Source: Paramacrobiotus metropolitanus
Lineage: Eukaryota > Tardigrada > Eutardigrada > Parachela > Macrobiotidae
Length of the DNA stretch: 64,000 nt
Assembly (NCBI RefSeq): GCF_019649055.1
Contig: NW_026570327.1
Span: 124,001-188,000, forward strand
Reading direction: 5' to 3'
The position numbers and the translations under genes were made by a program. Below the pieces are notes generated by a model. That model did not search any database. It saw nothing but the letters and a program-made list of their open reading frames with translations, and was not told where the DNA came from. Positions 22,739 to 60,300 of this stretch are shown piece after piece (the stretch's first letter is position 1; the number at the start of each line of letters is the position of its first letter).

Positions 22739-22990
22739 TGCTCAGAGGTTTTCAAGGAATCACCGTTTCAGATTTTTAAAGAAGGCACCTATTAGAAACG
22801 ATAGAAGGAAGGTAAATATTCTTAAGGATAATGTGGTATTTTATAATAACCTATTTTTTCGTAACTTTTATTTTTTATTCTGAAAAATTAACTGAAAAAA
22901 CAGAAAAATAATTAACGGAAAATGGAAGGTTTTTAGTGATTCACCTCAGTTCCATCGACAAGATCATTAAAATGCATACGAGTACAATTA

Positions 22991-36508: not shown

Positions 36509-39500
36509 ATGATCCTGCTACTGATCTTGTTTGCATCTCCACACACTGGCTGCACATCGCACACAGGTAAATAAAGACGTTTCATATTTTGTGGGAAGCC
36601 TTCTTCGCCTGACGCTTTTTGCAGTGGCAGATGTTTCTTGCTTCGAAAGCCTTGTTTCCCCTATGCCTACACCAGCAAAAATCTGGCTCAAGCAATATTC
36701 ATTGGAGGACTGCAAGATTTCGTGTCGTTTCGCCTTGGAAGTATACGATTTCCACTGCTGGTACACTGCCCACTATGCTGCCTCGCTGGACTGTGTTTTG
36801 CACGGAAATGAAAGCATGACGGTCATGCATGTACGACGATGGACATCTACGGCGTCTACATCTACGGCTACATCTCCCTCGGGATCCGCGGCGCTGTTCA
36901 GAAATTCCTGCGATCAGAAACGTAAACGTTTTTGATAACCCATCATCTTTAAATTGTAGAATTATTTTTAACAATGTCGCTCACGGGATTCTGGATTTTG
37001 AAGAACGGTATCAGTGTGTTGATCAAGCACAAAAATGTGCTTATCAGACGACCGCGCTGTGCCGAAACAAGGACATTATAACGGAGAAGTCCACAACACT
37101 TAGCGGCAAGGCATGCAAGTCTTGGAACACTACCCGGTATCCTAACGTGGGAAGCCATAATTTTTGCGCCAATCCCGATGGATCAGATGGTCCATGGTGC
37201 TATACGACGGATTTGAAGGAGAGGTGGGGTTACTGTTTTTCCAGCTGTTCCGGTGAGTGATGTATCTACGTAATATATTGGTAAAATACTACAAATAGAC
37301 TGCAGTTTGGAGTTAACACTTACCCACTACAGTCCATTGTGGTGCATGAATACTCTTATTTCCCACTGTACAAATGGGTACTTGATGCCTAATTTATGAG
37401 ACCAAAATCCCAATGCTTCATCCTCAATAAAAATTTGATACTATAACGGATTTTGTGCTGCTGTTCAGATGAGACACCTTGCGTAGATGAGAATAGACAG
37501 TGCGCAATGGACGGAAGTCCTGCGTGCCGACAGAACGATTACAAGGGAATTAAAAACATAACGTTCAGTGGATTACCATGTAAGAATTGGTCATTGAGCA
37601 ACAGACCATTGGAAGGAGACCATAACTACTGTCGAAATCCCGGCGGAGAAGAGCCGGCGCCTTGGTGTTACACCGAAAAAGGCTGGGATTACTGCTTTGC
37701 GCGCTGCAATCGTAAGCGAGGTCATGATGAAGAATGTTCATACAGTAAATAATTTTAAACTGGCATGTACTTTTCAAGACTGCTACTTTAATTTACGTTA
37801 AAATGTGAGCTACTACTGCATGCAGAGCTGAAAATACACATTTCATATGGGGCCTCGGATTTGCAGCGAACGAAATCTTGCATTGATACATAAACAAGAA
37901 CGTCCAATGGTAATCGTACTCATCGTTACTGATGACAGGTCGTTTTTAGGAGAAAAATGTCCGGAAGTTCCACCAAATCTAGCTCTCAAGACAATAAAAA
38001 CAAAACAATGGATCGATGGTCATCTGCATTCCAATACGCATCTTGCGGATGATTACACGAGCCCTTTGAACGTGAATATTACTATACACAAGCAATCGGG
38101 GCGAAGCTTTATTCTAACGATAAACAACTGGTCACCGAGAGCATTGTCCGAACTACGATGTAGAATTACCTTTGAAGATGCCGGTAAAACGCCCATCGAT
38201 GTAACTATCCCTGGCCCAGTTAATGACTGGACCGTATATCAGTATCACACCGAAATTTCCGGATTAAGTGAGGTTTCGGATATCAAGACGATTAAGGTCT
38301 AGGACTGCAATATTTGTAAACCCATTTAAAGGTCACTCATTGATAAGCAGAAAATCAAAATAGTTAAGGCCCTTTTAAGTGTCTGTTTGTTTTGGTTTGC
38401 GTAAAAAACGGCTGGAAACACGAACACTAAACGAGTTAACGTTAATATTGCAGGTGATCTTGCCCTTTCCATGGTATCCAATTATCTTTGTGGGCTACGG
38501 CAGGCTAGCAGCGCATGCCGAGAAATATGTGAACCTTACAGCGATGGATAAGCAGGCATTTTCTCGACTGCTCTCCGATCTCCGCATTATGTTTCATCTG
38601 CCTAAATACCGTCTATGGCTTCTTGGCTATCGTATGACCCAAAGCGACCCCATTCGGCATGGGCGAATGTCTGAGTTCGACCGCAAAGCCGACACGTACC
38701 TGGTGACACTACCGCTAAAGGTCAGCCAGACAGGCGGCGGTTTTGGTAACCTATTTTACGATGATTTGCGACCGGAGCGAAGATGGACCAGCTCGTATGT
38801 GTCAGTGGCCAGTTCCGAAATTAATGACTATCTCGCGGGCTGGGCAAAAGATCCGTTTTGGACGTTGGAACACGAACTGCAGCACAATCATGGCTGGAAA
38901 GATCGCGACTTCGAGATGCTGGCGACGCAGTATTTCATGTACGAACTAGCTGATGAACTGCATGATGCATGTGTGTTACGGTGGTTCAAAGCACCATTAG
39001 AACGCTACGAAGATACGGTTCTGCTCAGCGCGTTTCAGAATCCAGTTGACGGGCTGGTATATGTGTTATCCGCTTACACATACCGAACCTTAAATCTCCG
39101 TAAGCGACGGGAATACCGATACCGCTGAATCGAATCCATGCTAGAACTTTTATTTTGAAACAATGATAATTTTCAGAGGGGTTCATTACCACAGCTGGTC
39201 GCTCGTTTGACGTTACCCCAGCGCAGAGCGACAACTGCACAATACCGGAACTAGACTGCTACAGATTAAATCTGCCACGCTGTAGAACCGTGACCTCTTA
39301 TAATGGGACCAAGAGTACGACTCTTTCCGGGAAAACTTGCCAACAATGGAATGTCAACACGCCGCATAAAAGTTATAATCACCGTATTGGTAGTCACAAC
39401 TACTGCAGGAATCCCGGCAACAGCGATGGACCATGGTGCTACACGACCGACAAGAACGTCAACTGGGAGTACTGTTTCAACGACTGTGAGTAGAGAATTC

Positions 39501-40664
39501 CCAGTAAGATGTTACTCAGAAAGTTTACATGTTATCAAGATATCATGGTGATCATGGGTTACAGGTGGTTACCTTGCAAGCGATCCGGACGATCCTGTTT
39601 ACTGTGTGAACACAAGGAAAAAATGCACATACAAAAATTTGCCTCTGTGCCAGGATCGCATACCTCTTTGGGCAGCACAATTTCCTGATTGTGGTTAGAA
39701 TTTAGTTCATAAAGAGTGCACTTATCTTACAAAACTGCTGAGCTGGTTGATTTCCAGATGAGCAGAATCCGTGCTTGGATGAAGAAAACGGATGCTACTA
39801 CGATCAAAAAGCGGAGTGTGCACAGGCGATTATCATGTACGGCGGACCAAGATTTACGACTGCTGAAGGATTGACCTGCGCGCGCAGCCCATCCAGTGAT
39901 CCCCAAGTTCGTTGTTGGGGTGACCATGGACCGTCGTACTTCAATACGACACCGTACTGCTTCCCAAATCCAGATTCCAAATATGAAAGAGACCTCTGTT
40001 TTAAAACCTGCGGTAAGCAGTTGCAGAGTACATGAAATGCTTTATAGCATCAGAAGCCGCCGAAGAGGAGAGGTTAACGATTACGAGCAAGGACTCTTTT
40101 TCAGAATCGGAGATATTAAAGACGTTACGAGCCAAACCACGTGCATACATCCAGAGGAAATGGTTCATTCCGGCGCCGGCTAAATTCGCGTTCGTTGTCA
40201 ATAGCAATCAGTTAGCGTTTGTTCCATACCGATACGGTGCAGATGTTAACGATGAGAAAATCCGCTTGTACGGTTTGAAAACGGGGTCATGGCTGGGAGA
40301 CAACACAGTGAGCGGCCTTTTCGAAGCGCTGGGCAAAAAATATTATAACCCCCAATTTCTGCAAGGATACGGTGTTTTCGTGGGATCCCAGTACTGCCGA
40401 CTGGATAACGTCACGATGAAGGCCGTTGACTGCGAAAACGTGTACACCAGCACGAAGTGGGCGGATCTGCGACGCTTCTCCAGCGGACCCGGCGATTTCG
40501 ACCTGGTCTTCCGGGCGGACAGTTTAGCCTTCTTCTTCAAAGGCGCCGAATATCTGGTGTACGATCTGCAAGCAGGAAAGGCGTTGCCGTTCTATCCGCG
40601 CTCAACGAAAGAATTCCTTTACAAGGTCGGCATTCTCGGCACATCGTTTGCTGCACTGGTTTAG
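36509..40664 (+). CDS. Secreted PAN-kringle-M60 metallopeptidase-hemopexin-like protein, copy A
   Basis: Ten exons (36509-36566, 36625-36921, 37004-37252, 37469-37711, 37950-38296, 38454-39099, 39177-39485, 39565-39693, 39758-40012, 40105-40664) join to 1030 aa. One exon roughly equals one module: signal peptide MILLLILFASPHTGC; PAN/apple-like domain (DVSCFESL onward); kringle 1 (YQCVDQ to WGYCFSSC, with [16 protein letters not shown]); kringle 2; a beta-rich segment ([11 protein letters not shown]); the M60-like peptidase exon ([37 protein letters not shown]); kringle 3 ([18 protein letters not shown]); a small Cys module; kringle 4, degenerate; and a hemopexin-like end with [14 protein letters not shown]. 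The HExxH plus a downstream acid is the M60 zinc-site pattern, so a secreted, sugar- or mucin-directed protease is inferred. This is the most diverged copy, except for its last exon. Confidence 0.85.
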
Positions 40665-43023
40665 CTATTCATGTCTTGAAATTGGCAAGTTAGAAGTTAA
40701 CAGTTAACCGAGGTATGGAAAGCAGGAAAGATGGGAATGTTTTTCAGATCGATATGTGTTTGCAGTTTTTTTACTTCCTCGCAACACAGATTTCTTTTAC
40801 GCAGGAACAATAGATTTTCAGCTTGACTGCACTATCCACATTTGCCTGTAATTTATCTAGTCAGGTAAAAGTTCTACAGTACTTGCAGGCTTGCAGCTAC
40901 TTTGTACCTGGAGGCTGCGCTCCTTCGCGCAAATCCTTCGACAACACCGTTTGCGTAATACGTACAGTACACTTATCTGGTTTTTTCCCTAGAAATTTAG
41001 TCCGTACAGCTTGATCTTTACCGTGGAAAATGTTACATTAATTGAAGTGTGCAGCTCGCATGTGTGCATTGTACAGATACACATGCGCCAAAAATTAGAA
41101 AAACGACTATTTAAACTCATTAGCTTATGATTAGCCGAATTGCAGCCAAATAATCACACTGCAGTTTCATCAAACATCGGCAAAACGTGAAGAAGGTAAG
41201 TACATACTCTGTATTTTGTGTAGAATAGAACAAGTTTGGCTGAATATCACTGCAGTAATATTTGTAAGCGATATGGTATATAACTATATATACATGTATA
41301 ATGTCAAGGAAGCTGCTGGCTGCCGTAAAAATGTCCAGACCACGGCATTTGAATTGCTGATTAGTCAAAACGTCTACCTGGTACCATGTCTGGGCCACAA
41401 AAGCGCTTAGTGTCGATGAAACCTTAAATGCTATCCCGTATCCACTCACTGATAAAATTAACACTGGATTTTACGAGTAATAAATTCAATATGGTATGCA
41501 AGAAGTGACTACCGTTTCTGAAAAGCCCTTCTTTATTGCTCACACATGGCAGATTAATATTATGACATAAAACAGATACTGTAACTTGCTTCTGCGAAAC
41601 AGAATTACCGGCTCCGAGTTAATATTGTATTTCGAAACGTGGTTATCGTAATTATTATTATCTTCCTGGAGTAGACAACCCTTTCAAGGGACTTCGACAA
41701 TGACATTATAGGTGCTAAAATGAGATTATGCTGTACCTGCTAAAACCAACAATAAAGCAGGAACAAGAAACCTATCCAAATAGCATTTGGAAGTCCAACG
41801 CTTTTTAAGCAAACTGTAAAAATCCCAACGAACACTAACTGCACAGCGCTGCTACTGTTTCAACCTGATTTAATTTTGTCCATATGAATAGTATTTTTAA
41901 CTGCAGTTTGGTGCCCACATACGTTGGATTGGGCGATTTGTACTATAATACAAACTACAAAGTGATAATATTAGAAACGAAAACCCGTTCGAATTCACGC
42001 AATTGCTACAAAGGCTCTCGATGGCCATGGGGTTAATACCAAAATTAGGGTTTAGAAGAACAATTACTTTAGTGTGAAAGTGCGGTGTTGTAATTTACAT
42101 ACGTGGCTGCAAATCGCTAAGTTTGTAAAACCACATTTTAGGCATCCGGCTTAACGCGTCAGTCATCAATATCGTGAGTACTTTCTTTTAATGTCCATCA
42201 GCGAAACTTATCAATCCAGGCACACAGAAGTAATTTATGAATAAAGTGCAAAAGTAGTGCCCTTAAATCTGCTCGTAACAAAAATCGTGGTATATAAGAG
42301 AGGAAAAACCTGCACGAGAAAACCCCAGATCAGTTGTTGGACTACGCGCAACAGCTGACCTTGTCGGCACGACACGTTGGGCCAGCCAACATATTTTTCC
42401 CATCCGTTATTTAATGCTATAACCCTAAACCAGTTCACAATTGTTGGAGGTAAGCAGATGTACTGTGTTTAAGTAATTACTGGAAATCGTAGAAAGTGAT
42501 CCTGAATGCATGTCAGGTAGTGTGGCCCCAGTGTTTAAATTTCCTTGAGCCTGCTCTACCCTAGAGTACCTGAGATACGTTACCATTAGATCATTCTGGT
42601 AAATAATTATTGATGTCTGTGTACTGCAGGCCTAACAAAAGGTTGTCATGCAGTTTCAGGCTGCACTGTTGGCAGGCAAAACACCACATGGCTGTTGGAA
42701 CTATTTGGAGGTAATTTTAATGTGATCTGCAGATTTTAAGCTGTATCAATCAAGTTCAAAATTGTTTATATTTTTCGGTATTATTAAAGACTGATAAATG
42801 CTACTAGCGCTCCAGTAACCACAAGCGAAGCCAACAGCCCAAAGCCTCTAAATTTGTCGCTAACACACAGTAATACTCGTACAATAATACTCGTACAGTA
42901 TTACAATAATACTCGTACAGTATTACAATAATACTCGTACAGTATTACAATAATACTCGTACAATAATACTGTATAATTGTATAATGTATTAATACCTAG
43001 GCCTAACGCACTGTATTCTGTAG
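40665..43023. other. Spacer between copies A and B
   Basis: This 2.4-kb spacer includes 5' DNA that is partly shared with the region upstream of copy C. For example, a TAATAAATTCAAT block followed by CTTTATTGCTCACA occurs near 41480-41545 and again near 47778-47840. A short tandem repeat lies at its end. The minus-strand open frame 42235-42438 has no recognised domain. The start codon exon of copy B probably lies here but was not identified. Confidence 0.45.
42867..42975. repeat. Short tandem repeat, unit about 23 bp
   Basis: Four or five head-to-tail copies of a unit containing AATAATACTCGTACAGTATT, the first and last truncated. It sits about 50 bp upstream of the signal-peptide exon of copy B, in its presumed 5' region or first intron. 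Copy C has no such array at the matching place. Confidence 0.85.
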
Positions 43024-46000
43024 ATTCTCTGCGGCCATACTGACACTTGTCACCGCCTGTATCGCTGCAGGTACAAAGTACCTACCAGAACAAAGGCATC
43101 ATCGTCATTTCATATTGCTTGATTTATGATTATCAAATTTTTTAGAAATTGATCATTTTTGATATTGCAGCACCGGATGTGTCGTGTTTCGACCGTATGA
43201 CATCAGTCAGTCCCTCTTCGGCGCAGATATGGCTGAAACAGTACTCGCAGGATGAATGCAAAATCGCTTGTCGCTATGCATTGGAACTGTACGATTTTCG
43301 CTGCTCGTCTATTGGACACTACGCCGACACACTGGACTGCGTCCTCTACGGAGACGAAAGTGTCACCGTCACTCATGCCAAACGATGGACCTCAACGACT
43401 GTGCCATCGGGAACCGCAACGCTCTTCAAGAATTCATGCGAAAAACGTAAGTGCAGACAGAAGAAGGCGTTCGAAACTGCAAAATGGCAATTATTTTAGC
43501 TAACGCACTCCTGGTTTATGTACTTATACAGCAACTTATCAGTGCGTCGATGAAATCAACAAGTGCGCTTACCAGAAAACTGGGCTGTGCCAAGATAAAA
43601 ACCTTTTGACGAATAAAACAACCACTGTCAGCGGCAATACCTGTCAATCATGGAGCGGCACCAAATATCCCAACGTGGGCACACACAACTTTTGCGTCAA
43701 TCCCGATAACTCTGATGGTCCATGGTGCTATACGACGAACCCGAAGGAAAGGTGGGGTTACTGTTATCCAGACTGCCCAAGTAGGTGTCAGGTGATACTG
43801 TGAGTGTTGCATTATATCAGATGGCTTTTGTATGGTATTGATGACCACTGGCTACTGCTTCATTTCTGCAAAAATGTCCTTCGACTATCATCCATCACGC
43901 CTTTAATAATTATTATGCTCACAATTAAAACTTACCACTGTGAAAAGCTTCAACAAAAATTCATCGATCGAGAAATGCGGAGCACAACGTACTTTCTTTT
44001 CATCAGCGGACACGTTGACCTGCGTCAATGAGGTTGATCAGTGTGCTGTGGCTGGTAGTCCTATATGTCAGCGGGATAAGTATACTGGCACGAAATCGAC
44101 TACCTTTAGCGGATTTACTTGCAAAAACTGGCAACTAACCAGATTCGCTGCGGTGGGCAATCATAACTACTGCCGAAATCCCAGCGGAGACGATGCGCCT
44201 TGGTGTTATACGGAAACAAGTTGGGACTACTGCTTTGCTCGATGTGACGGTATGCAGCAACATTTAACACGTCGAACATGCTGTACGTATTTGTAACAGT
44301 CAGATAAACGCTGTACATGCTTGCATTTTCAGTTCAGCAATGCCCCACTGTGGCTTCGAATCCGGCTTTGACAATAGTTAAGATGAAACAATGGCAGGAT
44401 GGTCAGTTAGACGTTAATAACTTTTTCCCGGACGATTTCACCAGTCCTCTCAACATCAGTGTCACCGTACAACAATCGGGACAGACCTTTACATTGACCA
44501 TCAATAATTGGTCACCCCGGGCTTTAACCGAGCTGCGTTGCCGAATTCTCTTCAGGACAAGCGGAAAAGCGCCCATCGATGTTGTCGTGCCTGGCCCCAT
44601 AAACGACTGGACCGTGTATCAATATCAGACAAATATTCCTGGATTGGTGGACGTTGCAGATATTGATACTGTAAAGGTCGGTCTTACGTTGCTGATGGAG
44701 GGCGCGTTCTGTTTTATGTCAGATGTGTAATTTAAAACCCAGTTAGAAATTATTGCTGAAATTTTCGTACTACCCAGCTTGATCCAGACGACCAAAGGTC
44801 CGTAGCTAAATGTATTTCGCCTAAAAAATAACTGTAAGCGGAATAAGCACTACCAAAACCATTTCTTTAATTTTTTGCAGGTTATCTTTCCTTTCCCATG
44901 GTATTCAATCGTTTTGGTCGGATATGGCAGGCTGGCGACGGACGATGCAAAATTCCTGAGCGCAACAGCAAAAGAAAAGCAAGTTTTCGCTCGACTTGTT
45001 TCTGACTTTCGGATTCTGTTTCATCTGCCAAAATATCGTTTATGGATGTTGGGCTATCGGATGATGCAGAGCGACCCTGTTCGACATGGGCGACTGTCCG
45101 ACTACGACCGAAAAGCAGACACTTACCTTGTAACTCTGCCGCAGAAGCTGGACGCCGGTGGCGGTGGTCTGGCGAAATTGGGTTACGATGACCCGCGGCC
45201 GGAGCGGAAATGGACCGGATCCTGGGCTTCGATAGCCGCCGGACGTGTTACGAACTACTTATCCGGCTGGATGAAAGATCCTTACTGGACACTGGAGCAT
45301 GAACTGCAGCACAATCATGGATGGAGTGATCGGGAATTTGAAATGCAAGCCACGCAATATTTCATGCAGGAACTGGCTAAGGAAGCATATGCCGGTTGCT
45401 TACTGCGTTGGTTCAAAGCACCGTTGGAACGCTACGAAGACACAGCATTGCTCAGCGCTTTCCAGAATCCCGAGGACGGACTAGTTTACGTATTTTCGGC
45501 TTACACGTACCGGACAATAGATCTAAGTGGGTACATCAAACTGAAGCGTACTTTAAGTTTGTATGTATATTTACCCTTTCGCTTTTAGACGGGTTTATTA
45601 CGGATGCCGGTCGGCAGAGTACTTTCGGAGGTAATCCATTTGGTGGTGATTGCACTGTTCCTGGTTTGGACTGTTACCGTCTGCAGATTCCCAAGTGCAA
45701 GAACGTAACAGCCTATACTGGCACCAAGAGTACAACTCTGTCTGGGAGAACATGTCAACAGTGGAATCTTAACACTCCACAGTACAGCTACAATCACCAG
45801 CTGGGCAGCATTAATTACTGCCGCAATCCGGATAACGATGCTGGACCCTGGTGCTACACAACCGATAAAAATGTCCGATGGGAATACTGCTTCAAGGACT
45901 GTAAGTGCAATGCAACGGCAGTGGCATCCATTCCATCTACCATGGAGAGGTTTTGTAAAAATTTTGCATCGTTTAAACACTTGAAGCGATTTACTTTAAA

Positions 46001-47273
46001 TAATTATAAAACTGTATGTCTGCCGTGTGAAACTACTGATCGTAACCTTTCTGGTAGGCGGATATGCGTCTACGGACCCAGATGACCCTCTTTACTGTGT
46101 GAAAAATGACAAGACCTGCACGTATAAAAATATGCCGTTGTGTAAGGATCGCATACCCGGCTGGGCAATGGATCTTCCAGACTGCGGTGTGTTCATTTCA
46201 TAGCCGATCGCGATAATCTGAAATATCTGTTTACTCATTACGGAAACAGAAGGACTGGTTGCAACGCTTCGGCTCTTACAGATGATCGCGGTGCATGCAT
46301 CAATGAAGCTGACGGATGCATTCGGGATCAAAGCCTAAGTTGTAAGCCAGAGATTTACGAGTATAAAGGACCGAGATTTACGAGTGCTGAAGGCATGCCA
46401 TGTGCTGGAAGCCCATCTAGCGATCCATCGATTCGCTGTTGGGGAGATCACGGACCGACGTATTATAACACCACACCTTTCTGTTACGTCAACCCGGCCA
46501 CTCAAGAGGAAAGAGACTTATGTTTCAAGATATGCGGTAAGCAAATAAAGTAATAAGCTGATTAAGAAAAACATGAAAAAACAGCGTGATTTTTTCCTCA
46601 CGCATTAACTGTGATTGCCGTACCCAGCATTATGGATGGGTATACGTATGCCGTATACAGTTCGAGACTTCGAGTTATGACTACTTGATACGAGTAAGTA
46701 TGGTTTTCTTCAGAGTCAGAGATATTGAAGACGTTACGAGCCAAACCTCGTGCGTACATTCAGAGCAAATGGTCCATCCCTGACCCGGCAAAATTCGTAT
46801 TTGTTGTCAACAGCAATCAGCTCGCGTTTGTTCCATACCGATACGGCGCAGATATCAACGACGAGAAAATCCGCTTGTACGATTTGAAAACGGGGTCATG
46901 GCTGGGAGACAGAACAGTGAGCGGCCTGTTCGAAACGCTGAGCAACAAATACTACAACCCGCAGTTTCTGCAAGGATACGGTGTTTTCGTGGGATCCCAG
47001 TACTGCCGACTGGATGACGTCACGGTGAAGGCGGTTGACTGCGAAAACGTGTACACCAGCACGAAGTGGGCGGATCTGCGACGCTTCTCCAGCGGACCCG
47101 GCGATTTTGACCTGGTCTTCCGGGCGGACAGTTTAGCCTTTTTCTTCAAAGGCGCCGAATATCTGGTGTACGATTTGCAAGCAGGAAAGGCGTTGCCCTT
47201 TTATCCGCGCCCAACCAAGGAATTCCTTTACAAAGTCGGCATTCTCGGCACATCGTTTGCTGCACTGGTTTAG
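43024..47273 (+). CDS. Secreted PAN-kringle-M60 metallopeptidase-hemopexin-like protein, copy B (5' end incomplete)
   Basis: Exons recognised are 43024-43070, 43171-43446, 43532-43780, 44007-44249, 44333-44676, 44881-45526, 45589-45900, 46058-46186, 46282-46536 and 46714-47273, with the same phases as copy A. The first listed exon encodes the end of a signal peptide ([15 protein letters not shown]) and enters in phase 2, so a short upstream exon with the ATG is missing from my model. Domain order matches copy A: PAN ([17 protein letters not shown]), kringles 1 and 2, beta segment, M60-like domain with [19 protein letters not shown], kringle 3, the Cys module ([17 protein letters not shown]), kringle 4 and the hemopexin-like end. 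The frame is open throughout. A polyadenylation signal AATAAA lies about 75 bp after the stop. It is closest to copy C. Confidence 0.85.
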
Positions 47274-49123
47274 CTACACAAGTCCTCGAATTACCAATTT
47301 AAAAGTTGACTGCATAGCTTGCATTAATTCGTAACAATCAACTTTGACAATAAAGAAATTAAAGCGCGGAATTAACTTACTGATGTTTGAGGGGTTTTTT
47401 CCTTTAATATTGTATGTATGATGTTTGTGCTTCAAGGTAGGTGCAGTTCTATTTTGTCAGGCAATGTTTGAGGCTTTGAGCTAAAAAGCTTGTGGTCAGA
47501 AAACTGTAATAAAATCTGTTTTTTTTATCTAGCTTGAATCAGGTATAAAACGGTACGCACTCTACTTAGAAGTTTTTTCGAGTTTTTTTTTTAACTGGCG
47601 CTGTATATTTAAACGATAAGTTTTGTCAGAAAAGTTGTCGGTTGTTGCAATACAATTACCGGAGATTGAATTTGCTGATCAATCAAAAGTGTTCTGGCAA
47701 ACCACAAAAGCGCTATCCAGTAGAGCATCCAGGCCACTACTTGCAAATTAAACGCTGCATTACAGTATTACTAGGAGTAATAAATTCAATTTAGCACCGG
47801 GAATTGGCCACCGACTACTGAAAACCACATCTTTATTGCTCACAGGTAGTAAACCAATATGACGTAGGGTGGGTTTTTTCTGAGAGAACATTAATCGGTC
47901 TCGAGATGACTGTTTTACAACGCGCACACTGTGGCACTAAAATTCGTACGCGTACTCCTATAGTAATACTGATGTGTATAATTATACTGTTTCAAACCTG
48001 GTCCATAACCCTGTTATTTAGATAAAAGAATCTACTTCGATGTAAGTAAATATTTTTAGTTATAAAATACATAAATATATATACTGTTTGTATACAGTAC
48101 TCGTATTTCTTATATTTGTATATTGTATGTACTGTACCAGCGACATAACTTTTAGATGTCCTTTTAAAGTGTCATTCATCAATGCTATATGTACTTCTAC
48201 CGCAATTGCTTTCTCCAGTGTCGATCAGTGAAAACCGGCAATCCAGGCCTGGGCAAAGAATTTATGAACGAAGTGCAAAAGTATAACACACTTATCATCA
48301 AATCCACTTCTTACGAGTAAGTCATGAAACATTACGGGATGTAACTGCTGTACGAAAAACCAGGGCCAGGTGAACCACAGATCGGTTGTTGGACCACGGA
48401 CAACAACTGCCTTTGTAGGGTCGGGACGTTGAGGTCAGTAAATTTCCATCTGTGCTTTGGCACAACATCTTCATTTCACAGTTTGCCATAAAACTACTTA
48501 ATAACCATACATAATAATATTGTTCGCGGTATGTTAGTGTAATGTATAACCACTGAAGTTACAAATGGGCTTGGATACATGCCAGTTGGTATACCGGTCG
48601 CCAATGTAGCTACTGGTAGTTTTCTTGGGTTTATGGCATATAAACGACTGTGCGTGCGCTGTAGGCGGCAATAATAGGCCTATAGTTGTAAGTATAAACT
48701 GGAACTGGATGCGCGCCTAACACCAAAACGGCAACACCAAATGGCTGTCGGGATTATCTGCAGGTATTTCTAAGACTATTAAGTTAGTCTACAGTTTTAA
48801 GTTTCATCAGGCAAGTACAAAATTAATCAGGTAATTAGGTGGTAGCAGTTTCCGTAAGAACACTGGCAGCATGAAAACTGTCTGTCATCGGTAAGACTAT
48901 TGGCAGGATGATAAATACAGCGAATTAGGTAAACCTGTGCCTTTGAACACTCGTGTAAACTGAAGTACACTGCAGATGTACAACCCGAATAACCATAATA
49001 ACTCCGTAACGGAGGCCCACCGTATTTTGGTCACCTTTGGCCTTAAGGCTGAAGGTGATCACTTACCAGTCACGTTTATCACTTACCAGAATAAATTATC
49101 TTCTGAACTCTCGTTTTTTTCAG
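47274..49123. other. Spacer between copies B and C
   Basis: This is a 1.85-kb spacer with the 3' end of copy B (AATAAA at about 47349) and the 5' region of copy C. Parts resemble the A-B spacer, for instance CAATCCAGGC, then AATTTATGAA and AAGTGCAAAAGTA near 48240-48285 and near 42210-42255. No other gene was recognised. Confidence 0.45.
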
Positions 49124-52100
49124 ATCTTTCGTTGCCGCACTGACGCTGGCCAGCGCCTATGTCGCTGCAAGTAATCACATATCCACTTCAGAGTTATCGC
49201 AATTTTATAAACATTTTATCCCTTCTGACATTGCAGCACCGGACGTATCATGCTTTGACAGTTTGACATCAGTCAGTCCCTCTCCGGCGCAGATATGGTT
49301 GAAGCAGTATTCGCAGGATGAATGCAAAGTCGCTTGTCGTTACGCACTGGAGCTGTATGATTTTCGCTGCTCGTTCATTGGATACTACGCCGGCACACTG
49401 GACTGTGTCCTCTATGGAAACGAAAGTGTCACCGTCACACATGCCAAACGATGGACGTCAACGGCTTTGCCATCGGGAACCGCAACGCTCTTCAGGAGTT
49501 CTTGCGAAAAACGTAAAAACGCCTTTTAAAACTGTGAACCGGCAACTCAGTGAACTGACATACAATTTTATTTACAGCAAACTATCAGTGCTTGGATCAG
49601 ACCAATAATTGTGCATACCAGAAGACCGGTTTGTGCCAAAGTAAAGGCATTGTAACCAACAAATCGACCACCGTCAGCGGCAAGACTTGCCAATCGTGGA
49701 GCAACAGTCGATTTCCCGAAGTGGGTACCCATAATTTCTGCGCTAATCCAGATGGCTCAGATGGTCCGTGGTGTTACACCACAGACACGAGTGAAAGATG
49801 GGGCTACTGTTACCCAGATTGTCCAAGTAGGTAACAATGTGGGCATGGAAAAATTGGATGGCTTTTGTGTGGTGGCTTCTACATCCTTTTGGCTCGTTTT
49901 TGGTTACAGTAGACGCTCATCGAATATAATAATACTATGACTTTTTTTAATTCAAAACTGATACGATACCGCACTTACAGTACTGCAGCTGCATCAGTAC
50001 ATATCCGTTGATTAGTAAACTGACATTAAAATCTGCAATTTTATTTAATTAGCGGACAAGCTAACCTGTGTGAGTGAGGGCGACCAGTGCGCCAAAGCCG
50101 GTAGTCCTATTTGTCAATTGAATAAGTACACCGGTACGAAGACGACAACATTTAGCGGATTGCCCTGCAAGAACTGGTCGCTAACTAAATACTCTGCGGA
50201 GGGAATCATAACAACTGCCGAAATCCCAGCGGAGACGATGCGCCATGGTGTTATACCGAAACAAGTTGGGAGTACTGCTTTGCTCGATGTGACGGTACGC
50301 CGTTTACCTGTTATCTTTTTCATTTTCCTGTGACGTAGTCATATTATCCTACAATACAACCATACTGTATGAGACGCATTAAAAGTTCATGCACACTATA
50401 AATGTTGTATTTGTAGCTCAGCAGTGCCCCACGGCGCCTCCGAATCCGGCCCTGACTATAATTAAAACAAAAAAGTGGCAGGATGGTCAACTGGACGTTA
50501 ATAACCTTTTCCCTGACGATTACACCAGCCCCCTCAACATTAGCGTTACTGTGCAACAGTCGGGACAGACCTTTACACTGACCATCAATAACTGGTCACC
50601 CCGGGCTTTAACCGAGCTGCGTTGCCGAATTCTCTTCAGGACAACCGAAAAAGCGCCCATCGACGTCATTGTTCCGGGTCCGATCAACGACTGGACCGTG
50701 TATCAGTATCAGACGGCTATTCCGGGTTTGACGAGCGTTGCGGATATCGATACCGTAAAGGTCAGTTTTTTATTGTCCATTGCGTACTCGTACGCGATGT
50801 TTATGAAAATCACTTAAATGCTCGTATTGTCAGGCTTGATTCAGATGAAAAGCCGTAGCGACATTAATTTGGTGCTTGAAAAATAGCTCTACTGTATAAG
50901 CAGAAAACATATTATTGAAGCAATTTCGTTTGCGCAGGTTATTTTTCCATTTCCATGGTATTCGATCGTACTGATCGGCTACGGTCGACAGGCTACCGAT
51001 GACCCGAAATTTCTCAGTGTAACAGCAAAAGAAAAGCAAGTTTTCGCCCGACTCGTTTCGGACTTTCGGATACTGTTCCACCTGCCGAAATACCGTTTGT
51101 GGATGTTGGGCTATCGGATGACGCAAAGCGACCCCGTTCGGCATGGACGACTGTCCGATTACGACCGGAAAGCCGACACCTATCTGGTAACCTTTCCACA
51201 GAAGCTAAACGCCAGTGGTGGCGGTCTGGCGAAATTGGGTTACGATGACCCGCGGCCGGAGCGGAAATGGACCGGAGCCTGGGCATCGATAGCCGCCGGC
51301 CGTGTCAACGACTACTTATCCGGTTGGATGAAGGATCCTTACTGGACACTGGAACATGAATTGCAGCACAATCATGGATGGAGTGATCGGGAGTTCCAAA
51401 TGCAGGCCACGCAGTATTTCATACAGGAGCTGGCTACGGAAGCGTACGCCTCCTGCTTACTGCGATGGTTCAAAGCGCCGTTGGAACGCTACGAAGACAC
51501 AGCCCTCCTCAGTGCTTTCCAGAATCCCGTGGACGGACTAGTTTATGTGGTCTCGGCCTACACCTACCGGACGATAGATCTGAGTAAGTATAAAACATTT
51601 AAAACGTGCCTTGGATGAAGTACCAGGAGCAACTAGTACATGAGATGTACAGTTGCACTAAGGCAATCGCTGATTAAACCTACTTTACTTGTGGGAATCT
51701 CTCTGCTGTGGCCGCTAGTGAGGTGGCATGCTCACTGCGTCCATTAAGCGAATGCCTAAACTCGGGACTTCCGCTGGTACACACTTTATTGCTTTTTCTT
51801 CTGAGAAACGAAGATTACCGCCGTGTGGTGAAAATCTCGTGTACGTTTAATCATTATATGTGTATGCACATCTGCAGCTGATTTAAAGGTAACAGTTTGA
51901 AGACACAGACTCTTTCAAGACTCTCAATTTAGCGATGAAAACTACAAAAAATTGCAATTAATTTAGGGAAACACAAACCCCGGCATGCAGACACTGCGAC
52001 GCACTATCTGTACTGTGGGCTTACTTCTACTGCGAATATAAATAATACCTGCTCGCGTAGAGATTGGCAGATGAATTTGACCTTTGATTTCCTTCAGGCG

Positions 52101-53803
52101 GGTTTATCACGGATGCCGGTCGGCAAAGCTCATTCGATGGTAATCCACTTGGAGGAGACAGCTGTACTGTTCCGGGTGTGGACTGTTATCGTCTGAAGAT
52201 TCCCAAGTGCAAGAATTTGACAGCCTACAGCGGCACCAAGAGTACAACTCTGTCCGGGAGAACATGTCAACAGTGGGATGTTAACACTCCCCAGTACAGC
52301 TACAACCACCAATTGGGCAGTAATAATTACTGCCGCAATCCTGATAAGGATGATGGACCGTGGTGCTACACAATGGATAAAAGTGTCCGATGGGAGTACT
52401 GCTTCAAAGACTGTAAGTCCAGTGCACCGGCTATTAAATCCGTTCGGTCTCTGTGCTTCATATACTTACATGTATAGCTTAAAAATTTTTAAAAAAGTTA
52501 AATTTGCACGCCCGCATCACGCATGCACATCGCGCGTCTACATGCAGCTCACCGTGACCTTTCTTTTAGGTGGATATGCGACTACGGATCCAGATGATCC
52601 TGGTTACTGCGTGAAGAAAGACAAGAGTTGTACATATAAAAACATGCCCTTGTGCAAGGACCGCATACCTGGATGGGCAATTGATCTTCCAGACTGCGGT
52701 ATGTTCCTTAAGTTGCTGATAATCTGAAAGTACATACATTCCACATGGCACACACATTCCTTATACGGAAACAGCTGAGTCGTTACGTTGCTGTTCTTAC
52801 AGATGATCACGGTGCATGCTTTAATGAAGTTGATGGATGCCTTCGCGACCAGAGCCAGGGCTGTAAGCTGGAGATCTTCAATTATAAAGGACCGAGATTT
52901 ACGAGTGCTGAAGGCATGCCATGTGCTGGAAGCCCATCCAGCGATCCATCGATTCGCTGTTGGGGAGATCACGGACCGACGTATTACAACACCACACCTT
53001 ACTGTTATGTCAACCCGGCCACTCAAGATGAGAGAGACTTATGTTTCAAAATATGTGGTAAGTGAAAACAGATAAATTAACATTGCAGTATTATTACTAG
53101 TATACTGCAACTAAAGAAGAACACAAAAAATAGCGTGGCTTCCCCGTTACAAATAGGCTATACAGCGTAGTGCGTACCATGTAAAGCTCGACTTACTCGG
53201 TTGTCCTTTTTTAACATTCTGATACGAGTATGGCTTTCTTCAGAGTCAGAGATATTAAAGACGTTGCGAGCCAAGCCGCGTGCGTACATCCAGAGCAAAT
53301 GGTCCATTCCGGAACCGGTGAAATTCGCGTTCGTTGTCAATAGCAATCAGTTAGCGTTTGTTCCATACCGATACGGTGCAGATGTCTACGATGAGAAAAT
53401 CCGCTTGTACGATTTGAAAACGGGGTCATGGCTGGGAGACAAAACAGTGAGCGGCCTTTTCGAAGCGCTGGGCAACAAATATTATAACCCCCAATTTCTG
53501 CAAGGATACGGTGTTTTCGTGGGATCCCAGTACTGCCGACTGGATGACGTCACGGTGAAGGCGGTTGACTGCGAAAACGTGTACACCAGCACGAAGTGGG
53601 CGGATCTGCGACGCTTCTCCAGCGGACCCGGCGATTTCGACCTGGTCTTCCGGGCGGACAGTTTAGCCTTCTTCTTCAAAGGCGCCGAATATCTCGTGTA
53701 CGATTTGCAAACAGGAAAGGCGCTGCCCTTCTATCCGCGTCCAACCAAGGAATTCCTTTATAAAGTCGGCATTCTCGGCACATCGTTTGCTGCACTAGTG
53801 TAG
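49124..53803 (+). CDS. Secreted PAN-kringle-M60 metallopeptidase-hemopexin-like protein, copy C (one-base frame break)
   Basis: Exons are 49124-49170, 49237-49512, 49578-49826, 50053-50294, 50417-50760, 50938-51583, 52098-52412, 52570-52698, 52803-53057 and 53244-53803. The signal-peptide exon reads [15 protein letters not shown] and, as in copy B, needs an upstream ATG exon. All modules of copies A and B are present, including [14 protein letters not shown]. Exon 4 (kringle 2) is 242 nt instead of the 243 nt in A and B. Around 50201-50210 one base is missing (GAGGGAATC where B-like sequence would read GGGCAATC), so the reading frame is lost before the second half of kringle 2. Either this copy is a young pseudogene or the base is a sequencing error; every later exon stays open. 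Exon 7 has one extra codon relative to B. Confidence 0.82.
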
Positions 53804-54303
53804 CGTGCTTCTCTCATAAAAGAAACATTTGTTCAGTAATCGAAAAGGTTCGTTTGCTTTCTTTGTGGTTTATTGTTAATTGCATTGCTGCAAAGGTTTA
53901 TCAGGATTTAAGTACTGTACGTTGACTTCCAGTCTTCCAGACAGAAAACTCAAAATTTACTAGAATTATGAGCAAGACGGGTAGTTCATTCTTTAAGTTT
54001 ATTGTAATCCCATGATCACGATTCTGAACGTCACAGCAAAAAAAGAGGGAAACCAACTGCCCAAACAATTTCCCGTTAAATCGGTAACAATCAAGCCGCG
54101 GATTTCAAACAAAAACATCTAAGGAACAATACCAAACAAAAAAATATCCGTTGAGATTATAAAACAAATATGGTACATGTTATGAATATCATCCCCATCA
54201 AAGCACTGTTTATGCAACAAAATACCGCTGACTGGGTTTCGAGAGAAAAGAGTGCACCCTTCCAAGATCCAGCAGCCCTGATAATAGAGATCGACTGACT
54301 GCT
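53804..54303. other. Convergent intergenic region
   Basis: Space between the 3' end of kringle-M60 copy C (+) and the 3' end of the NURF301/BPTF gene (-). It should contain both 3' UTRs; nothing else was recognised. Confidence 0.5.
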
Positions 54304-57300
54304 TCATTTGCCCTTCTGCGGCGCTTTACTCAGCCGAAACGGAGTGGTTTTGCGGATAAATTCATCCTCCATAATGTCAGCATACTGATAATAAATTGTA
54401 TTCTCTCGATTGAAAGTGCGCGCATTATCAAAAATCAATCCACAGTCATAGAGAAATTCCTGGAGGAAGCGATACTGACGGTTCTGCAGCTTTTCCGAAA
54501 CCGTTCCCAGATCTACCATACAAAAAACCCCAGTAAAAACATAACATTTTTATTTTCTTACGTTGTAGTACCTACTTATAAAAGTAGGTCAAACACTTAC
54601 CCATTGGTTCACGAATGACCCGATAGTAATTAGGCGCCTCTTCCTCTTTAACCGGTGACAGAAAGAAACTGGCTTGGGGGAGACTCTTCAGTTGAGCAAG
54701 GATTTTTTCTAGTTTCTCAATATCCGCTTCCGTCAGTTCACGAAAGAGTGAATCTTTAAACTCGGTTTTCTTCAAACATCCATCACACACATAGCGCCGT
54801 AGAACCTGCTTCGATGTTCGACCAACACAACGCGGATGATACCATTCACGGCAGCGTTCGCACTTAATGAACTTCCGGTATCCCCTGTTAGCACAACAGA
54901 AATCATGCTAAACATAGACCAGTTTCGTGCAAAAGGTTAATGTCTAAATATTAATAGAATATGGCCTTGAGAAATGTATTTCTCTTTCCCTTTGTGTTAT
55001 TAAAAAAATCAGCATCCACTAACTAATTTGCGTGACGGGCTCGTGCAGTTCCGAAAAATTAACTTACTTAGCGGGATCGTACAATTCCTGGCAGAAGCAG
55101 TACCGTTGTCCTTGCTCCTTTTTCCCTGGCTCTCGGATCATTTTCTGCCGTCCATTACGAATAGGTTCCTTCTCCTCAGGTGGCGGCGCAGTCATCACAG
55201 TATTAACAGGCGCAGGTTCTGGCTCAGCCACCGTTTCCGGCAGATCCAATACCGCGGTTTCAGTGTTCACTGCCACACATCCATCCACTTTATTCTGAAT
55301 CTTAGGCACGCGTATTTTCTTGACAACACCATGAGATTTCTTTGATAACTTCTCCTTCGGAAGCGCTGTAGGCTCCTTTGGAGGCACTGAAGGCTCTTTT
55401 GGAGGCGCCGACGGCTCTTTCGGAATCGCTGGAGGTTCCTTTGCTCCAGCGGACTTCTTAGACACCTTATTTAACCGCAAAATAATCGGAGGCATGGGAA
55501 GAGCTGGTGGTAGATTGAAATCAATATTAGCATTCACGGGAGGAGCGGGCAACGGTGCTGGTGTAGGGGCTGACATCGATCGCTCCAAATCTTGGAAATT
55601 CACGGGCGATGGACTGCGAGGTAGTTTAACTGTCAGTTTCACGGCAGCCTTCTTGGACTTGGATTTCTTTTGAGTGGATTTAACGGGGGTGGGATTTTCC
55701 GCCACAACAACAGGAGTATCAGCCACAGGTTCTGTCTTCTGTTTCTTCTTCTTGGAGCTCTTCCCTTTCCGCTTCGTTTCCGCAGGAGGCTGCTGAGGAG
55801 TGGCGGGAGCAGTTTGCGCTCGGCAAGTAGGACAATACCAAGGATTCTCGTCCAGTTTAGGATCGCCCTGTTTTTCGCCGACGCAGTCTCCATGAAACCA
55901 TTTATCACACCGATCACAGCAGACATAAAACCTGTAACAAAAATAACAGTATAATCTCATCACAACCTTCACGGCTGATTCCTAATCCACTCACTTCTTT
56001 TTATCATAGGGAGTCTGACAATAGCAATGCAATTCTTTCGAACTCCTGTTCGCCTTCCGCTTCTTGGGCGGTGGAGATGTGATTTCCGGAGGCGCCACCA
56101 CCGGTGTCGCCGGAACGGCCGCATCACTGTCTCGCTTACGCTTCTTGCTTTTCTTCTTCTCAACCACAATCGGTTCAACCACCTCTTGGACCGGCTCCTC
56201 GGTAATCTCCACTTTCAACACCTCCTCCGTAGCAGGCTCTGTTGCCTCCTCTTCGGTCTTCTGCTTCTTTCGCTTTCGCTTCTTTTCTTTCTTATCCTTT
56301 TTGTCCTTCTTTTCTTTTTTATCTTTCTTCTCTTTCTTTTCACTTATAACTTCTTCGGCGTCATCACGTTCTTTATCCTTGCGCTTTTTCGCTTTCTTCT
56401 TCTTTTCCTTTTCCCGTTTTCTCTTCTTGTTCTTCTTCTTTTCGCCCTCTTCCACTGGGGTTTCTCCTTCCAAAAGCGAGGTCTCTCGTTTGACGGGAGA
56501 TGCAGAACGAGATAGCGGAGGTACGGTTGGTTCGACAGCGGCGGTCGCAGCAGCCAGTGCCGCCGCTTCTTCAGCCGCTTTCTGCGCGGCTTCGGCTTGT
56601 AATCGCTCCTTCTCGGCTTCTTCCGCAGCCTTCTGCAGCTTCTCCGCTTTGGAAGGACGTCCACGTTTCTTGGGAATTTTGGGAATTACCTCTTTCTCTT
56701 CTATCTTTGGACCAGTTGAAATCATTTTCGCTCGGGGTACCTTCGCTTCGTCCGGACTGGAGAAGACCTTTTTGTCTTCTGGTGTCGACTCGTCCGTGAT
56801 AATTAGACCAGTTTCGTCCGCAACGGGTGGTGTCGGTGTGGTCACCTTGACCTCGTCGCGCTGTTTTTTCTTATATCTTCCCCGACGTTTCTTAGGCGAA
56901 CCAGTACCAGGTGTAGAAGACATGGCTCTCGGACGCACAGGCAAGTCCGGGAATAGGTGCGGATGCACTCTCTGTCAACATATTTAAATCAAAATAATAT
57001 TAATGTGTTACTACTACAAAACTTAACATCCAACTTGTTCATGAGAAATCCTTACCACAAGTGCCTGCAGCGCGGTTGCGTGCATATTATTCTGCGATTT
57101 CCGGTAGACACTCTTAACGTGCATGATGCGGTTAGTCAACAGTTTCCGCAATTGCAGCGTTCGTTTATTTATCCGATCATTCGCAGCAATTACAACAGCA
57201 TCCATCACCGTCTGAGCAGCATCCGCAGCCTGAGCGGCTTCCTTCGCTTTACCGCGAGACTTTGGCTGCACACCGTCCTTGTAAGAAATTTGCAGTTTGT

Positions 57301-60300
57301 TCAGCGCTTCTTGTGTTAGCGTTCCACTTTTAATTTGTTCCATAACTAAAAATCACAAGATGATAAGCAGAGGCAGCCAGAATTCGGAATTCTATATCAT
57401 CATACTGTTCTGCAGATCCGCGGGTAAAGTTGACGTTTCTGATTTCTCTGATTCGCTTTCGTTACTGGCCGGTTCAACTGGCTCTGCAGGAGTAGAAGCA
57501 GATTCAGCCGCGGCTGGAGTAGCCGGAGTGATTTTCGCACCGGATTTAAACTGGTACACAATTTGCTGCATCCGACCTAAACAGAATATAAAGGCAACGC
57601 TCCATATAGTCCGCAAATTTTGAAACAGTCTGAATTAAACTAACCAACAAAGTTTGGTTGTATGAGATATGTTCGATTTCCCACAACAACCTGTACAGGT
57701 GTTGTTCCGACGTCCGTGGTGGATTTAAGCAAATTATGTTGACTTAGCTTCTGACCACTGGCGACCGGGGTAGCTGGCGGGCTGCGGTTGTTGCTCGAAT
57801 ACTTAATCGGCGCTATTTGTTTGATGACGGGTTTAGGCGGTTCGGGTGGAGGATGTTCGATGCGATCGTAAAAAGATCGAATTTCCCACAAATCCACTGC
57901 CTCTTCTCCGACCCATATTTCCTGCGTGAATGGTTCTCTGAACTTCGGTTGTTCCAGTTTACGTTCTCGTAGTCCCTCACGACCAGGCGTCGACTTCAAC
58001 AAATCTATGAAAAAACAGTACAATTATCTTTTGAGCTCTTCCTAATCGGTCATTTTACCTAATGCTTATAACATTTCTTAAATTTTTTTCTTTTGCAGTA
58101 ACACCATGCCAGGCAGGTGACTTACTTGCAACCACTGCAGCATATATATATTTCGCATAATAATAGTTGATTCGCTTGGTCATCAACACATGCTAACTTG
58201 AATACTTCCTACTACGTACTTTTCTGATTTCCCTCTCGAAAAGGCACAACTTCCCGCCTAACCAAATATTCACATCGCGGAAAATCCGAGAATCGAGCAC
58301 TGGAGCGTTTTTGGATAATTTCGGACGTGCAGGTGCCAGAGTCATCTTTTAAGATCTTTTTCCCGCCTAAAACAATACAATTAAAGAATCCAAACTGTGA
58401 TTAACTACAATCATTGATCATTAACCAACCGCTCATACCAGCCAGCCCCTTATTGTGCAAATCTTCCCAGCGCAAGGCGGCATGCAACATCTTCATCTGC
58501 AATGCCACACCTCCCCAGTTTTTGATGGCATATGTTCGAAATCGCCAGATGGTACGGGTGTTGGGGCGCGGGAAATGAGGATATTCCCAATACTGGGCCG
58601 TTTTGTAATCGTACTTGAAACCGGGTAGCTGCAATACATAAGGCAGTTTTAACATAAAAAGCGGCTCAAGCGGTCTGATCAACTACTTTACGTCATACCT
58701 CGCTCAGTCCGGCATTGAGAGCCAACACCATGAAGTCGGTATGCGAAACACGGAAGAAGTCAAGCAGGTTTTCTTCCTTCACCATACGCAACAGTGCCGG
58801 CAACATTGCTTTGTATGTGACGTTCTTCGGATTGTTCAGGTTGACAATTCCAGCCGTGTTTAACGCAACCGGCGCCACAGCTGCTTTTCCAGGAGTGTTG
58901 TCCTTCTTCTCCTCAGCGGCAACTGCGGCGGGACCGCCTTCCTTCATAATTCGCTTTTCTTCTTCGGTTGCTTGCCCATTAAGCAGAACCACATCTTTCT
59001 GTCCATTTGACTTCGAAGGCTCAACGTTTTCAAGAGCTTCCGTTTTCACGGGCCCATCGGTCGTGATGGTTAGACAACTCTCCTTTTTTTCATTCGCAGT
59101 CGATGGGGCAACGTATGGCTCCATATTTCTCAGACGATCCGTAGTCTGTAGAGTCTTCTTTAACTGATCTTTGAGAACATCGTCAACCGGATAAAATTTG
59201 GAGTCCGATGCAAAAGCCGCTGATATATCCAGTACATCCTCCTCCACGTTGTCGTCAGGTACGGCTTTGTTCGGGACACAGGGCGCTTCCGGTTCTTCCG
59301 TATACCGACTACTCCACCAGAAAACCCCACCCCGACCGGAAAGACGAAATTCTTCACCTTTATGTTTCCATATCTAAACAATTCAACGATGCAAATTATC
59401 TATGCTAAAGAAAAAAAATTTTAATATGTCGCACCTGATGTTGTACACCCTGAACGAAATTCACGTAGGCTTTTTTCGCAGACCGACTTATGATCTCTTC
59501 ATCATCACGACGACGGGCTCTGGGTTCTTCTTTGTCAATATTGGCAAATTTTCCCCACTTAAGGCATCCTACAACGACAAATAACGGACTGCCAAATAAT
59601 TTCAGTTTGTTTTCAATACAGTTTCCCTAATTTCCACAATACAGTTTCCCTAATTTCAGTACGTGGTCATGAATTCGGGTTCAGTCATGACTAATTTCAA
59701 ACCAGATGCCTCACCTAGAGTTTCGTGCCAGGCCGGTACGAATACCACTGGTTTACAAGAGGTTTCGAACCTGGAGAGAGCCACGGCTAACTCCTCTGGT
59801 TTCTCTACCTTTTCCAGCGCTTTGACCCATTCCGCACGGTACGTTGCCCAATGAGGATGATAAAAGGATGGATGAATATTCTTCTCCATTTCCAACAATG
59901 TAGCGCGCAATGTCGGCACCATAGTTTTGCAGAGTCCCGTGGTCAGGCCATTCCACCGGAAATCCCACGGAGTCTGTTTTTCTCCCGGCAAGGAAAACTT
60001 CATAGCGAACAGCTTTTCCCGTGAGCGCTTATCTTCTGGCTTCTTGCCCTGGGCCGGCAGGCCGAGTGGACTGTTATGGTAATTTTTATAAATCCGGAAT
60101 GTTCCTTCCACGCCCAGTTTGTATAAAACACCAACAACTTTTGACAGATCAAAGGTCAACTTGGGATCACTACTGCATGGCGGAGGAATTACGCTCGGTT
60201 CTTTTATTTTGTGATTGAGTGGTGTATCGGCGTAGGATCTCGGAACAATAGCACCTGTTCGAGTTCGAGTGGCAACACGAGGACCTGATGATATAAATAG

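What the first reader, a model, noticed from the sequence alone, without database searches (positions are those of the whole stretch)
36509..53803. Tandem array of a novel PAN-kringle-M60 peptidase-hemopexin-like secreted protein
Three consecutive genes share ten module-sized exons coding for: signal peptide, PAN, kringle, kringle, beta domain, M60/enhancin-like peptidase, kringle, Cys module, kringle-like, hemopexin-like. The HELQHNHGW motif with upstream RPERKW fits the M60 zinc-site layout (HEXXH, then an acid about 8-28 residues on). M60 enzymes act on mucin-type glycoproteins. I know of no described protein with M60 embedded between kringles; the order is plasminogen-like in flavour but with an unrelated protease. 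A role in extracellular matrix, digestion or defence is inference.
Basis: partly seen in the sequence, partly recalled or inferred. Interest (0 to 1): 0.88.

Follow-up and report, generated by a model that had tools for sequence, protein, structure and literature searches.

The report
Kringle proteins with orphan zinc-protease-like domain
An animal genome carries three neighbouring genes for a large secreted protein that combines blood-clotting-type binding modules with a new domain bearing a zinc-protease signature; the module order looks undescribed, but the claimed mucin-cutting M60 family membership is not supported, and one of the three copies is broken.

Summary
The array is real. G1 (36509-40664) and G2 (42688-47273) splice into intact 1,030- and 1,027-residue secreted proteins. 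G3 (48741-53803) has a 1-bp frameshift in its second kringle exon. All exons are under purifying selection (dN/dS 0.05-0.17 where measurable). Pfam confirms three kringles, a PAN domain (in G2 and G3) and one hemopexin repeat. Profile comparison adds a fourth, degenerate kringle and a truncated kringle stub.

The central claim, an M60/enhancin peptidase, is not supported. The HELQH exon matches no Pfam family at E<=10. It scores no better than motif-preserving shuffles against M60 profiles that do recognise distant M60s. No solved M60 structure is hit, and the AlphaFold model is uninformative (pLDDT 35). The motif, HELQHNHGW[SK]D, fits the metzincin consensus HExxHxxGxx(H/D) and is invariant in all copies, whereas the nearest gluzincin-type Glu is Gln in G3. 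The beta and HELQH exons, joined by a phase-0 intron, form one ~330-residue orphan module.

Best reading: a tandem family of secreted, kringle-anchored proteins with an orphan, probably metzincin-like, zinc-peptidase domain. Activity and fold are untested. Animal genomes could not be searched, so taxon and architecture frequency are unknown.

The parts
36509..36566 (+). G1 exon 1: signal peptide MILLLILFASPHTGCTSHT
   Evidence: ORF and splice donor GTAAAT, phase 1 out; the 5' end of G1 is less certain than the rest
36625..36921 (+). G1 exon 2: PAN/apple-type exon (six invariant Cys)
   Evidence: alignment with the G2 and G3 exons that hit PAN_1
37004..37252 (+). G1 exon 3: kringle 1
   Evidence: Pfam Kringle E 1e-9
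37469..37711 (+). G1 exon 4: kringle 2
   Evidence: Pfam Kringle E 2e-10
37950..38296 (+). G1 exon 5: N-terminal half of the orphan module ('beta domain')
   Evidence: phase-0 junction to exon 6; no significant family
38454..39099 (+). G1 exon 6: HELQH exon, [11 protein letters not shown]
   Evidence: no Pfam, NCBIfam or PDB match
39177..39485 (+). G1 exon 7: kringle 3 (lysine-site residues largely lost)
   Evidence: Pfam, alignment
39565..39693 (+). G1 exon 8: truncated kringle start (Cys module)
   Evidence: hhalign to family kringles E 3e-4
39758..40012 (+). G1 exon 9: degenerate kringle
   Evidence: hhalign to family kringles E 1.7e-5; above all Cys-fixed shuffles
40105..40664 (+). G1 exon 10: hemopexin-like C-terminus and stop
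   Evidence: Pfam Hemopexin E 6e-7
42688..47273 (+). G2: complete gene, 11 coding exons, 1,027 aa
44333..44676 (+). G2 beta exon (N-terminal half of orphan module)
44881..45526 (+). G2 HELQH exon, [11 protein letters not shown]
45589..45900 (+). G2 kringle 3 with plasminogen-type lysine-binding residues (PDND, W, R, W)
46714..47273 (+). G2 hemopexin-like exon
   Evidence: Pfam E 1.3e-6
48741..53803 (+). G3: third copy, frameshifted; probable pseudogene or sequence error
50053..50294 (+). G3 kringle 2 exon with 1-base deletion near 50200
   Evidence: alignment with G2 exon
50938..51583 (+). G3 HELQH exon, [11 protein letters not shown] kept, downstream Glu changed to Gln
53244..53803 (+). G3 hemopexin-like exon, homogenised with G1 and G2
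   Evidence: dS 0.17-0.26

Best explanation
A small tandem family of secreted modular animal proteins: signal peptide, PAN, two kringles, a ~330-residue orphan module with a zinc-peptidase motif, kringle 3, a kringle stub, a degenerate kringle and a hemopexin-like C-terminus. Most likely mechanism: after secretion, PAN, kringles and the hemopexin-like part dock the protein on lysine- or glycan-bearing matrix, mucus or microbial glycoproteins, and the orphan module is a zinc-dependent endopeptidase (two His ligands and catalytic Glu in HELQH, third ligand probably the Asp of [11 protein letters not shown], metzincin style) that cuts proteins on that surface. Shown: gene structure, modules, motif and purifying selection. 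Inferred: zinc binding, peptidase activity, metzincin fold, substrate, site of action. G3 is probably a recent pseudogene or carries a sequence error.
For: Intact ORFs with consistent phases in G1 and G2. Kringle, PAN, hemopexin by Pfam. dN/dS 0.05-0.17 where dS is measurable, lowest for the HELQH exon (0.05 for G2-G3; 0.08 for G1-G2 at near-saturated dS), with [13 protein letters not shown] the second longest invariant run. Expected chance count of HExxHxxGxx[HD] per protein 2e-5 to 1.2e-4. Metzincin consensus HExxHxxG/NxxH/D with Asp as the rarer third ligand (PMC12237041). G2 and G3 kringle 3 keep the PDxD...W...RW pattern of plasminogen kringle 4. Beta and HELQH exons form one unit: the only phase-0 intron among the modules, flanked by phase-1 introns.
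Against: No metzincin or other peptidase family in Pfam matches the exon even at E 10 and no PDB chain does. The AlphaFold model is uninformative. There is no clear Met-turn: a conserved C[LV]LR sits 23 residues after the Asp with Leu where metzincins have Met. The position two after the second His is His, which fails the generic zinc-protease signature PS00142 (pattern from memory). The motif could belong to a non-catalytic or differently folded domain. Only three paralogues from one genome were available.
Confidence: 0.5

Rival explanations
1. The orphan module is a very divergent M60/enhancin-like gluzincin (beta exon = M60-like N-terminal domain, HELQH exon = catalytic domain) acting on mucin-type glycoproteins.
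For: HExxH with Glu at x9 in G1 and G2 and conserved Glus at x19 and x23 in all copies; Trp four residues before the motif and Asn after it, as in M60s; a beta-type exon directly upstream, as in M60-like_N + M60 proteins (compare).
Against: No PF13402/PF03272/PF17291 hit at E<=10; scores of -1 to 0 bits, within motif-preserving shuffles, while a Bacteroides-only M60 profile scores other M60s 16-32 bits; no M60 structure hit; the Gly of HExGH present in all M60s sampled is Gln here; the x9 Glu is Gln in G3; the ~45-residue segment between the ..TxP strand and the RPER-like stretch is reduced to about 12.
Confidence: 0.2
2. The module is a catalytically dead or non-peptidase domain; the HExxH motif is structural or coincidental and the protein is an adhesive or recognition scaffold (matrix, egg coat, immune lectin-like).
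For: No peptidase family recognises it; every other module is a binding module.
Against: [13 protein letters not shown] is invariant although synonymous sites between G1 and G2 are near saturation; the motif fits a metzincin consensus at a chance rate of about 1e-4 per protein.
Confidence: 0.22
3. The genes are decaying duplicates, not functional proteins.
For: G3 has a frameshift and a Glu-to-Gln change.
Against: G1 and G2 are intact over about 1,030 codons; dN/dS is 0.05-0.17 in all exons where measurable.
Confidence: 0.05

Closest known systems
Plasminogen / HGF family (PAN + kringles + trypsin-like domain)
   Same: Secreted, N-terminal PAN followed by kringles, phase-1 module exons; kringle 3 of G2 aligns with plasminogen kringle 4 including lysine-site residues
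   Different: No trypsin domain; an unrelated zincin-motif module sits between kringles; hemopexin-like C-terminus
M60/enhancin-like peptidases (PF13402; BT4244, SslE, BcM60)
   Same: HExxH, upstream beta-type region, binding modules in the same chain
   Different: No profile match; HELQH rather than HExGH; PAN, kringle and hemopexin are not among the companion Pfam domains tabulated for 415 M60-like proteins in 2012 (PMC3267712)
Metzincins with Asp as third ligand (snapalysins, thuringilysins, igalysins)
   Same: Motif HExxHxxGxxD (PMC12237041; IgAse itself has one extra residue)
   Different: No sequence family match; Met-turn Met not found; fold unknown
Matrix metalloproteinases
   Same: Zinc motif upstream of a C-terminal hemopexin-type part
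   Different: No Peptidase_M10 match, no kringles or PAN in MMPs, Asp rather than third His

Membership tests
M60/enhancin-like peptidase (PF13402/PF03272) | Match to the family profile | tested here: not met
   No hit at E<=10 for three copies; own M60 HMMs no better than shuffles, positive control works
M60/enhancin-like peptidase (PF13402/PF03272) | HEXXHX(8,28)E | tested here: inconclusive
   Met by G1 and G2 (x9, x19, x23) and by G3 at x19 and x23 only; chance of such a Glu given HExxH is 0.5-0.6
M60/enhancin-like peptidase (PF13402/PF03272) | Gluzincin/M60 fold | tested here: inconclusive
   AlphaFold mean pLDDT 35
Metzincin clan | Zinc motif HExxHxxG/NxxH/D | tested here: met
   HELQHNHGW[SK]D in all three copies; definition from PMC12237041
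Metzincin clan | Met-turn | tested here: inconclusive
   No canonical Met-turn; conserved C[LV]LR with Leu at the Met position, position judged by eye
Metzincin clan | Match to any known metzincin family | tested here: not met
   No Pfam hit at E<=10, no PDB chain
Kringle proteins | Kringle domain | tested here: met
   Three stretches in G1 and in G2, E 1e-28 to 1e-31
PAN domain | PAN_1 profile and six Cys | tested here: met
   G2 and G3 exons above cut-off; G1 by alignment only
Hemopexin family | Hemopexin repeats forming a four-bladed propeller | tested here: inconclusive
   One repeat above Pfam cut-off; low-confidence model shows repeated strand-strand-strand-helix units and weak propeller matches
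Plasminogen/HGF family | C-terminal trypsin-like domain | tested here: not met
   No Trypsin hit in the whole protein

The most novel reading that the evidence does not exclude
The beta + HELQH unit is the founding member of an undescribed zinc metallopeptidase family (Asp-type, metzincin-like motif) that animals mounted between kringles, giving a plasminogen-like surface-targeted protease with a different catalytic engine.
Probability: 0.35. Interest if true: 0.75.

Novelty: new variant of a known kind. Interest (0 to 1): 0.5.

Why it matters
Kringle-guided proteolysis is known mainly from trypsin-like enzymes such as plasmin. A separate lineage that couples PAN, kringles and a hemopexin-like part to a zinc-peptidase-type module would show that surface-targeting modules were recombined with an unrelated catalytic domain, and the orphan module could define a new peptidase family. 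The three copies also show exon-limited homogenisation of the hemopexin-like exon and decay of one copy. All this depends on showing that the module is an active peptidase.

Tried and rejected
(1) M60 membership: Pfam at E<=10, two own M60 HMMs with shuffle controls and a working positive control, hhalign (P about 0.05, motif only), PDB hmmsearch; all negative. (2) AlphaFold of the HELQH exon from the three paralogues: pLDDT 35, not used, no fold search run on it. (3) AlphaFold of the hemopexin-like exon: pLDDT 46; Foldseek gives only weak generic beta-propeller matches, not counted as evidence. (4) Relatives in viral contigs and bacterial/archaeal genomes: none. (5) Weak Pfam hits of the beta exon (Lyase_8_C 0.025, H_lectin 0.11, Endotoxin_C2 0.22) differ between copies and were dismissed as chance. 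(6) Own-genome search: no genome held. (7) Further array members in the window: none outside the three copies. (8) Papers with kringle, hemopexin and PAN domain together: none held; kringle plus M60 plus metallopeptidase: eight papers, none relevant by title.

Full report
Observation. The window is eukaryotic, with introns and animal-type neighbours (Slo-like potassium channel RCK domain, MMS19, radial spoke protein 3, nitronate monooxygenase, armadillo repeats, a PHD/DDT chromatin protein). Splicing by conserved GT..AG junctions gives G1 (ten exons, 36509-40664, 1,030 aa) and G2 (eleven coding exons, 42688-47273, 1,027 aa) with no internal stop. G3 (48741-53803) has the same exons but a 1-base deletion in the kringle 2 exon, so its spliced frame is broken. 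No other copy lies in the window. The 5' end of G1 is the least certain part of the models: its first exon does not correspond to the two signal-peptide exons of G2 and G3.

Modules. Whole-protein Pfam scans give three kringles (E 9.8e-29 and 1.1e-31) and a hemopexin repeat over cut-off. Exon-wise scans add PAN_1 for G2 and G3 (5.7e-5, 1.1e-4) and raise Hemopexin to about 1e-6. The exon called kringle-like is a degenerate kringle: it aligns with the family's own kringles (hhalign E 1.7e-5) and scores 13.9-20.3 bits against a best of 12.6 among 999 shuffles that keep the cysteines. The Cys module is the N-terminal piece of the same kringle type (hhalign E 2.8e-4), present without the rest. Kringle 3 of G2 and G3 keeps the PDxD...W...R-W residues that make the lysine-binding site of plasminogen kringle 4, while G1 has lost them (alignments; the role of these residues is established knowledge of plasminogen, not tested here). 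Every module is bounded by phase-1 introns except the junction between the beta exon and the HELQH exon, which is phase 0. These two exons are therefore best read as one shuffled module of about 330 residues.

Selection and history. Nei-Gojobori dN/dS is 0.05-0.17 in every G2-G3 exon with measurable dS, and lowest for the HELQH exon (0.05). G1 is old relative to G2 and G3: dS is above 1.8 or saturated in every exon except the hemopexin-like one, where all three pairs have dS 0.17-0.27. The simplest reading is gene conversion or unequal exchange limited to the last exon. G3 carries, besides the frameshift, a Glu-to-Gln change just after the zinc motif. Its exons otherwise look constrained, so it is either newly dead or affected by a one-base sequence error.

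Is it M60? Pfam finds no family in the HELQH exon at E<=10, NCBIfam none, and a profile of the three copies finds no PDB chain at E<=10 although several M60 structures are in the PDB. I built M60 profiles from SslE-type and other M60 genes plus BcM60 and Akkermansia M60 fragments printed from the PDB. A profile of three Bc enzymes alone recognises the SslE-type and other M60s at 16-32 bits, but the window proteins score about -1 bit. The combined profile gives them -0.9 to 0.1 bits, inside the distribution of shuffles that keep HELQHNHGW (the earlier profile agrees). AlphaFold with three sequences gave pLDDT 35 and says nothing about the fold. M60 membership is therefore not supported, though a very divergent relative cannot be excluded. 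Two local features that resemble M60 are the Trp four residues before the motif and the Asn after it.

What the motif looks like. The invariant segment is [13 protein letters not shown], then Ser or Lys, then Asp: HExxHxxGxxD. A 2025 structural paper gives the metzincin consensus as HExxHxxG/NxxH/D, the third ligand being His or, rarely, Asp (PMC12237041). By composition the chance count of that full pattern is 2e-5 to 1.2e-4 per protein, whereas a Glu 8-28 residues after any HExxH is expected half of the time or more. The nearest gluzincin-type Glu (x9) is not conserved in G3, but the Gly and Asp are; two other Glu residues (x19, x23) are conserved in all copies, so a gluzincin site is not ruled out. 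Weak points of the metzincin reading: no known metzincin family is matched, and the Met-turn Met is missing (a conserved C[LV]LR stands where a CIMR-type turn might be; judged by eye).

Mechanism. The best-supported account is a secreted protein held on a matrix, mucus or microbial surface by PAN, kringles and the hemopexin-like part, which exposes a zinc-dependent peptidase module. The secretion signal and the modules are shown by sequence. Zinc binding, catalysis, substrates and tissue are inference. A catalytically inactive scaffold is the main functional rival, and a divergent M60 the main structural one.

Novelty. Papers in the held library with kringle, hemopexin and PAN domain together: none. 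The 2012 survey of 415 M60-like proteins does not list kringle, PAN or hemopexin among companion domains (PMC3267712). Xenoturbella-specific proteins rich in PAN and kringle annotations have been noted (PMC11521371), so lineage-specific PAN/kringle expansions are known in principle. Animal genome databases could not be searched, so the frequency of this architecture remains open. I rate it a new variant of a known kind (modular kringle protein) with an orphan zincin-motif module.

Noticed in passing
40105-40664, 46714-47273, 53244-53803: The hemopexin-like last exon is 92-94% identical at DNA level among all three copies (dS 0.17-0.27) although the other exons of G1 are near saturation against G2 and G3: exon-limited gene conversion or unequal exchange.
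   Followed up: partly
49578-49826: G3 kringle 1 is far more divergent from G2 (74% nt, dS saturated) than its neighbouring exons (82-89%), suggesting a mosaic history with the other G3 exons exchanged with G2.
   Followed up: no
50938-51583: Besides the frameshift upstream, G3 has Gln where G1 and G2 have Glu just after the HELQH motif.
   Followed up: partly
42858-42989: AT-rich tandem repeat, 22-bp unit (TACAATAATACTCGTACAGTAT), in the first coding intron of G2.
   Followed up: no
54200-62513: Minus-strand ORFs with DDT and PHD domains (ACF1/BAZ-like chromatin remodelling subunit) downstream of the array.
   Followed up: no
21180-22741: Minus-strand nitronate monooxygenase (PF03060) in two exons.
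   Followed up: no
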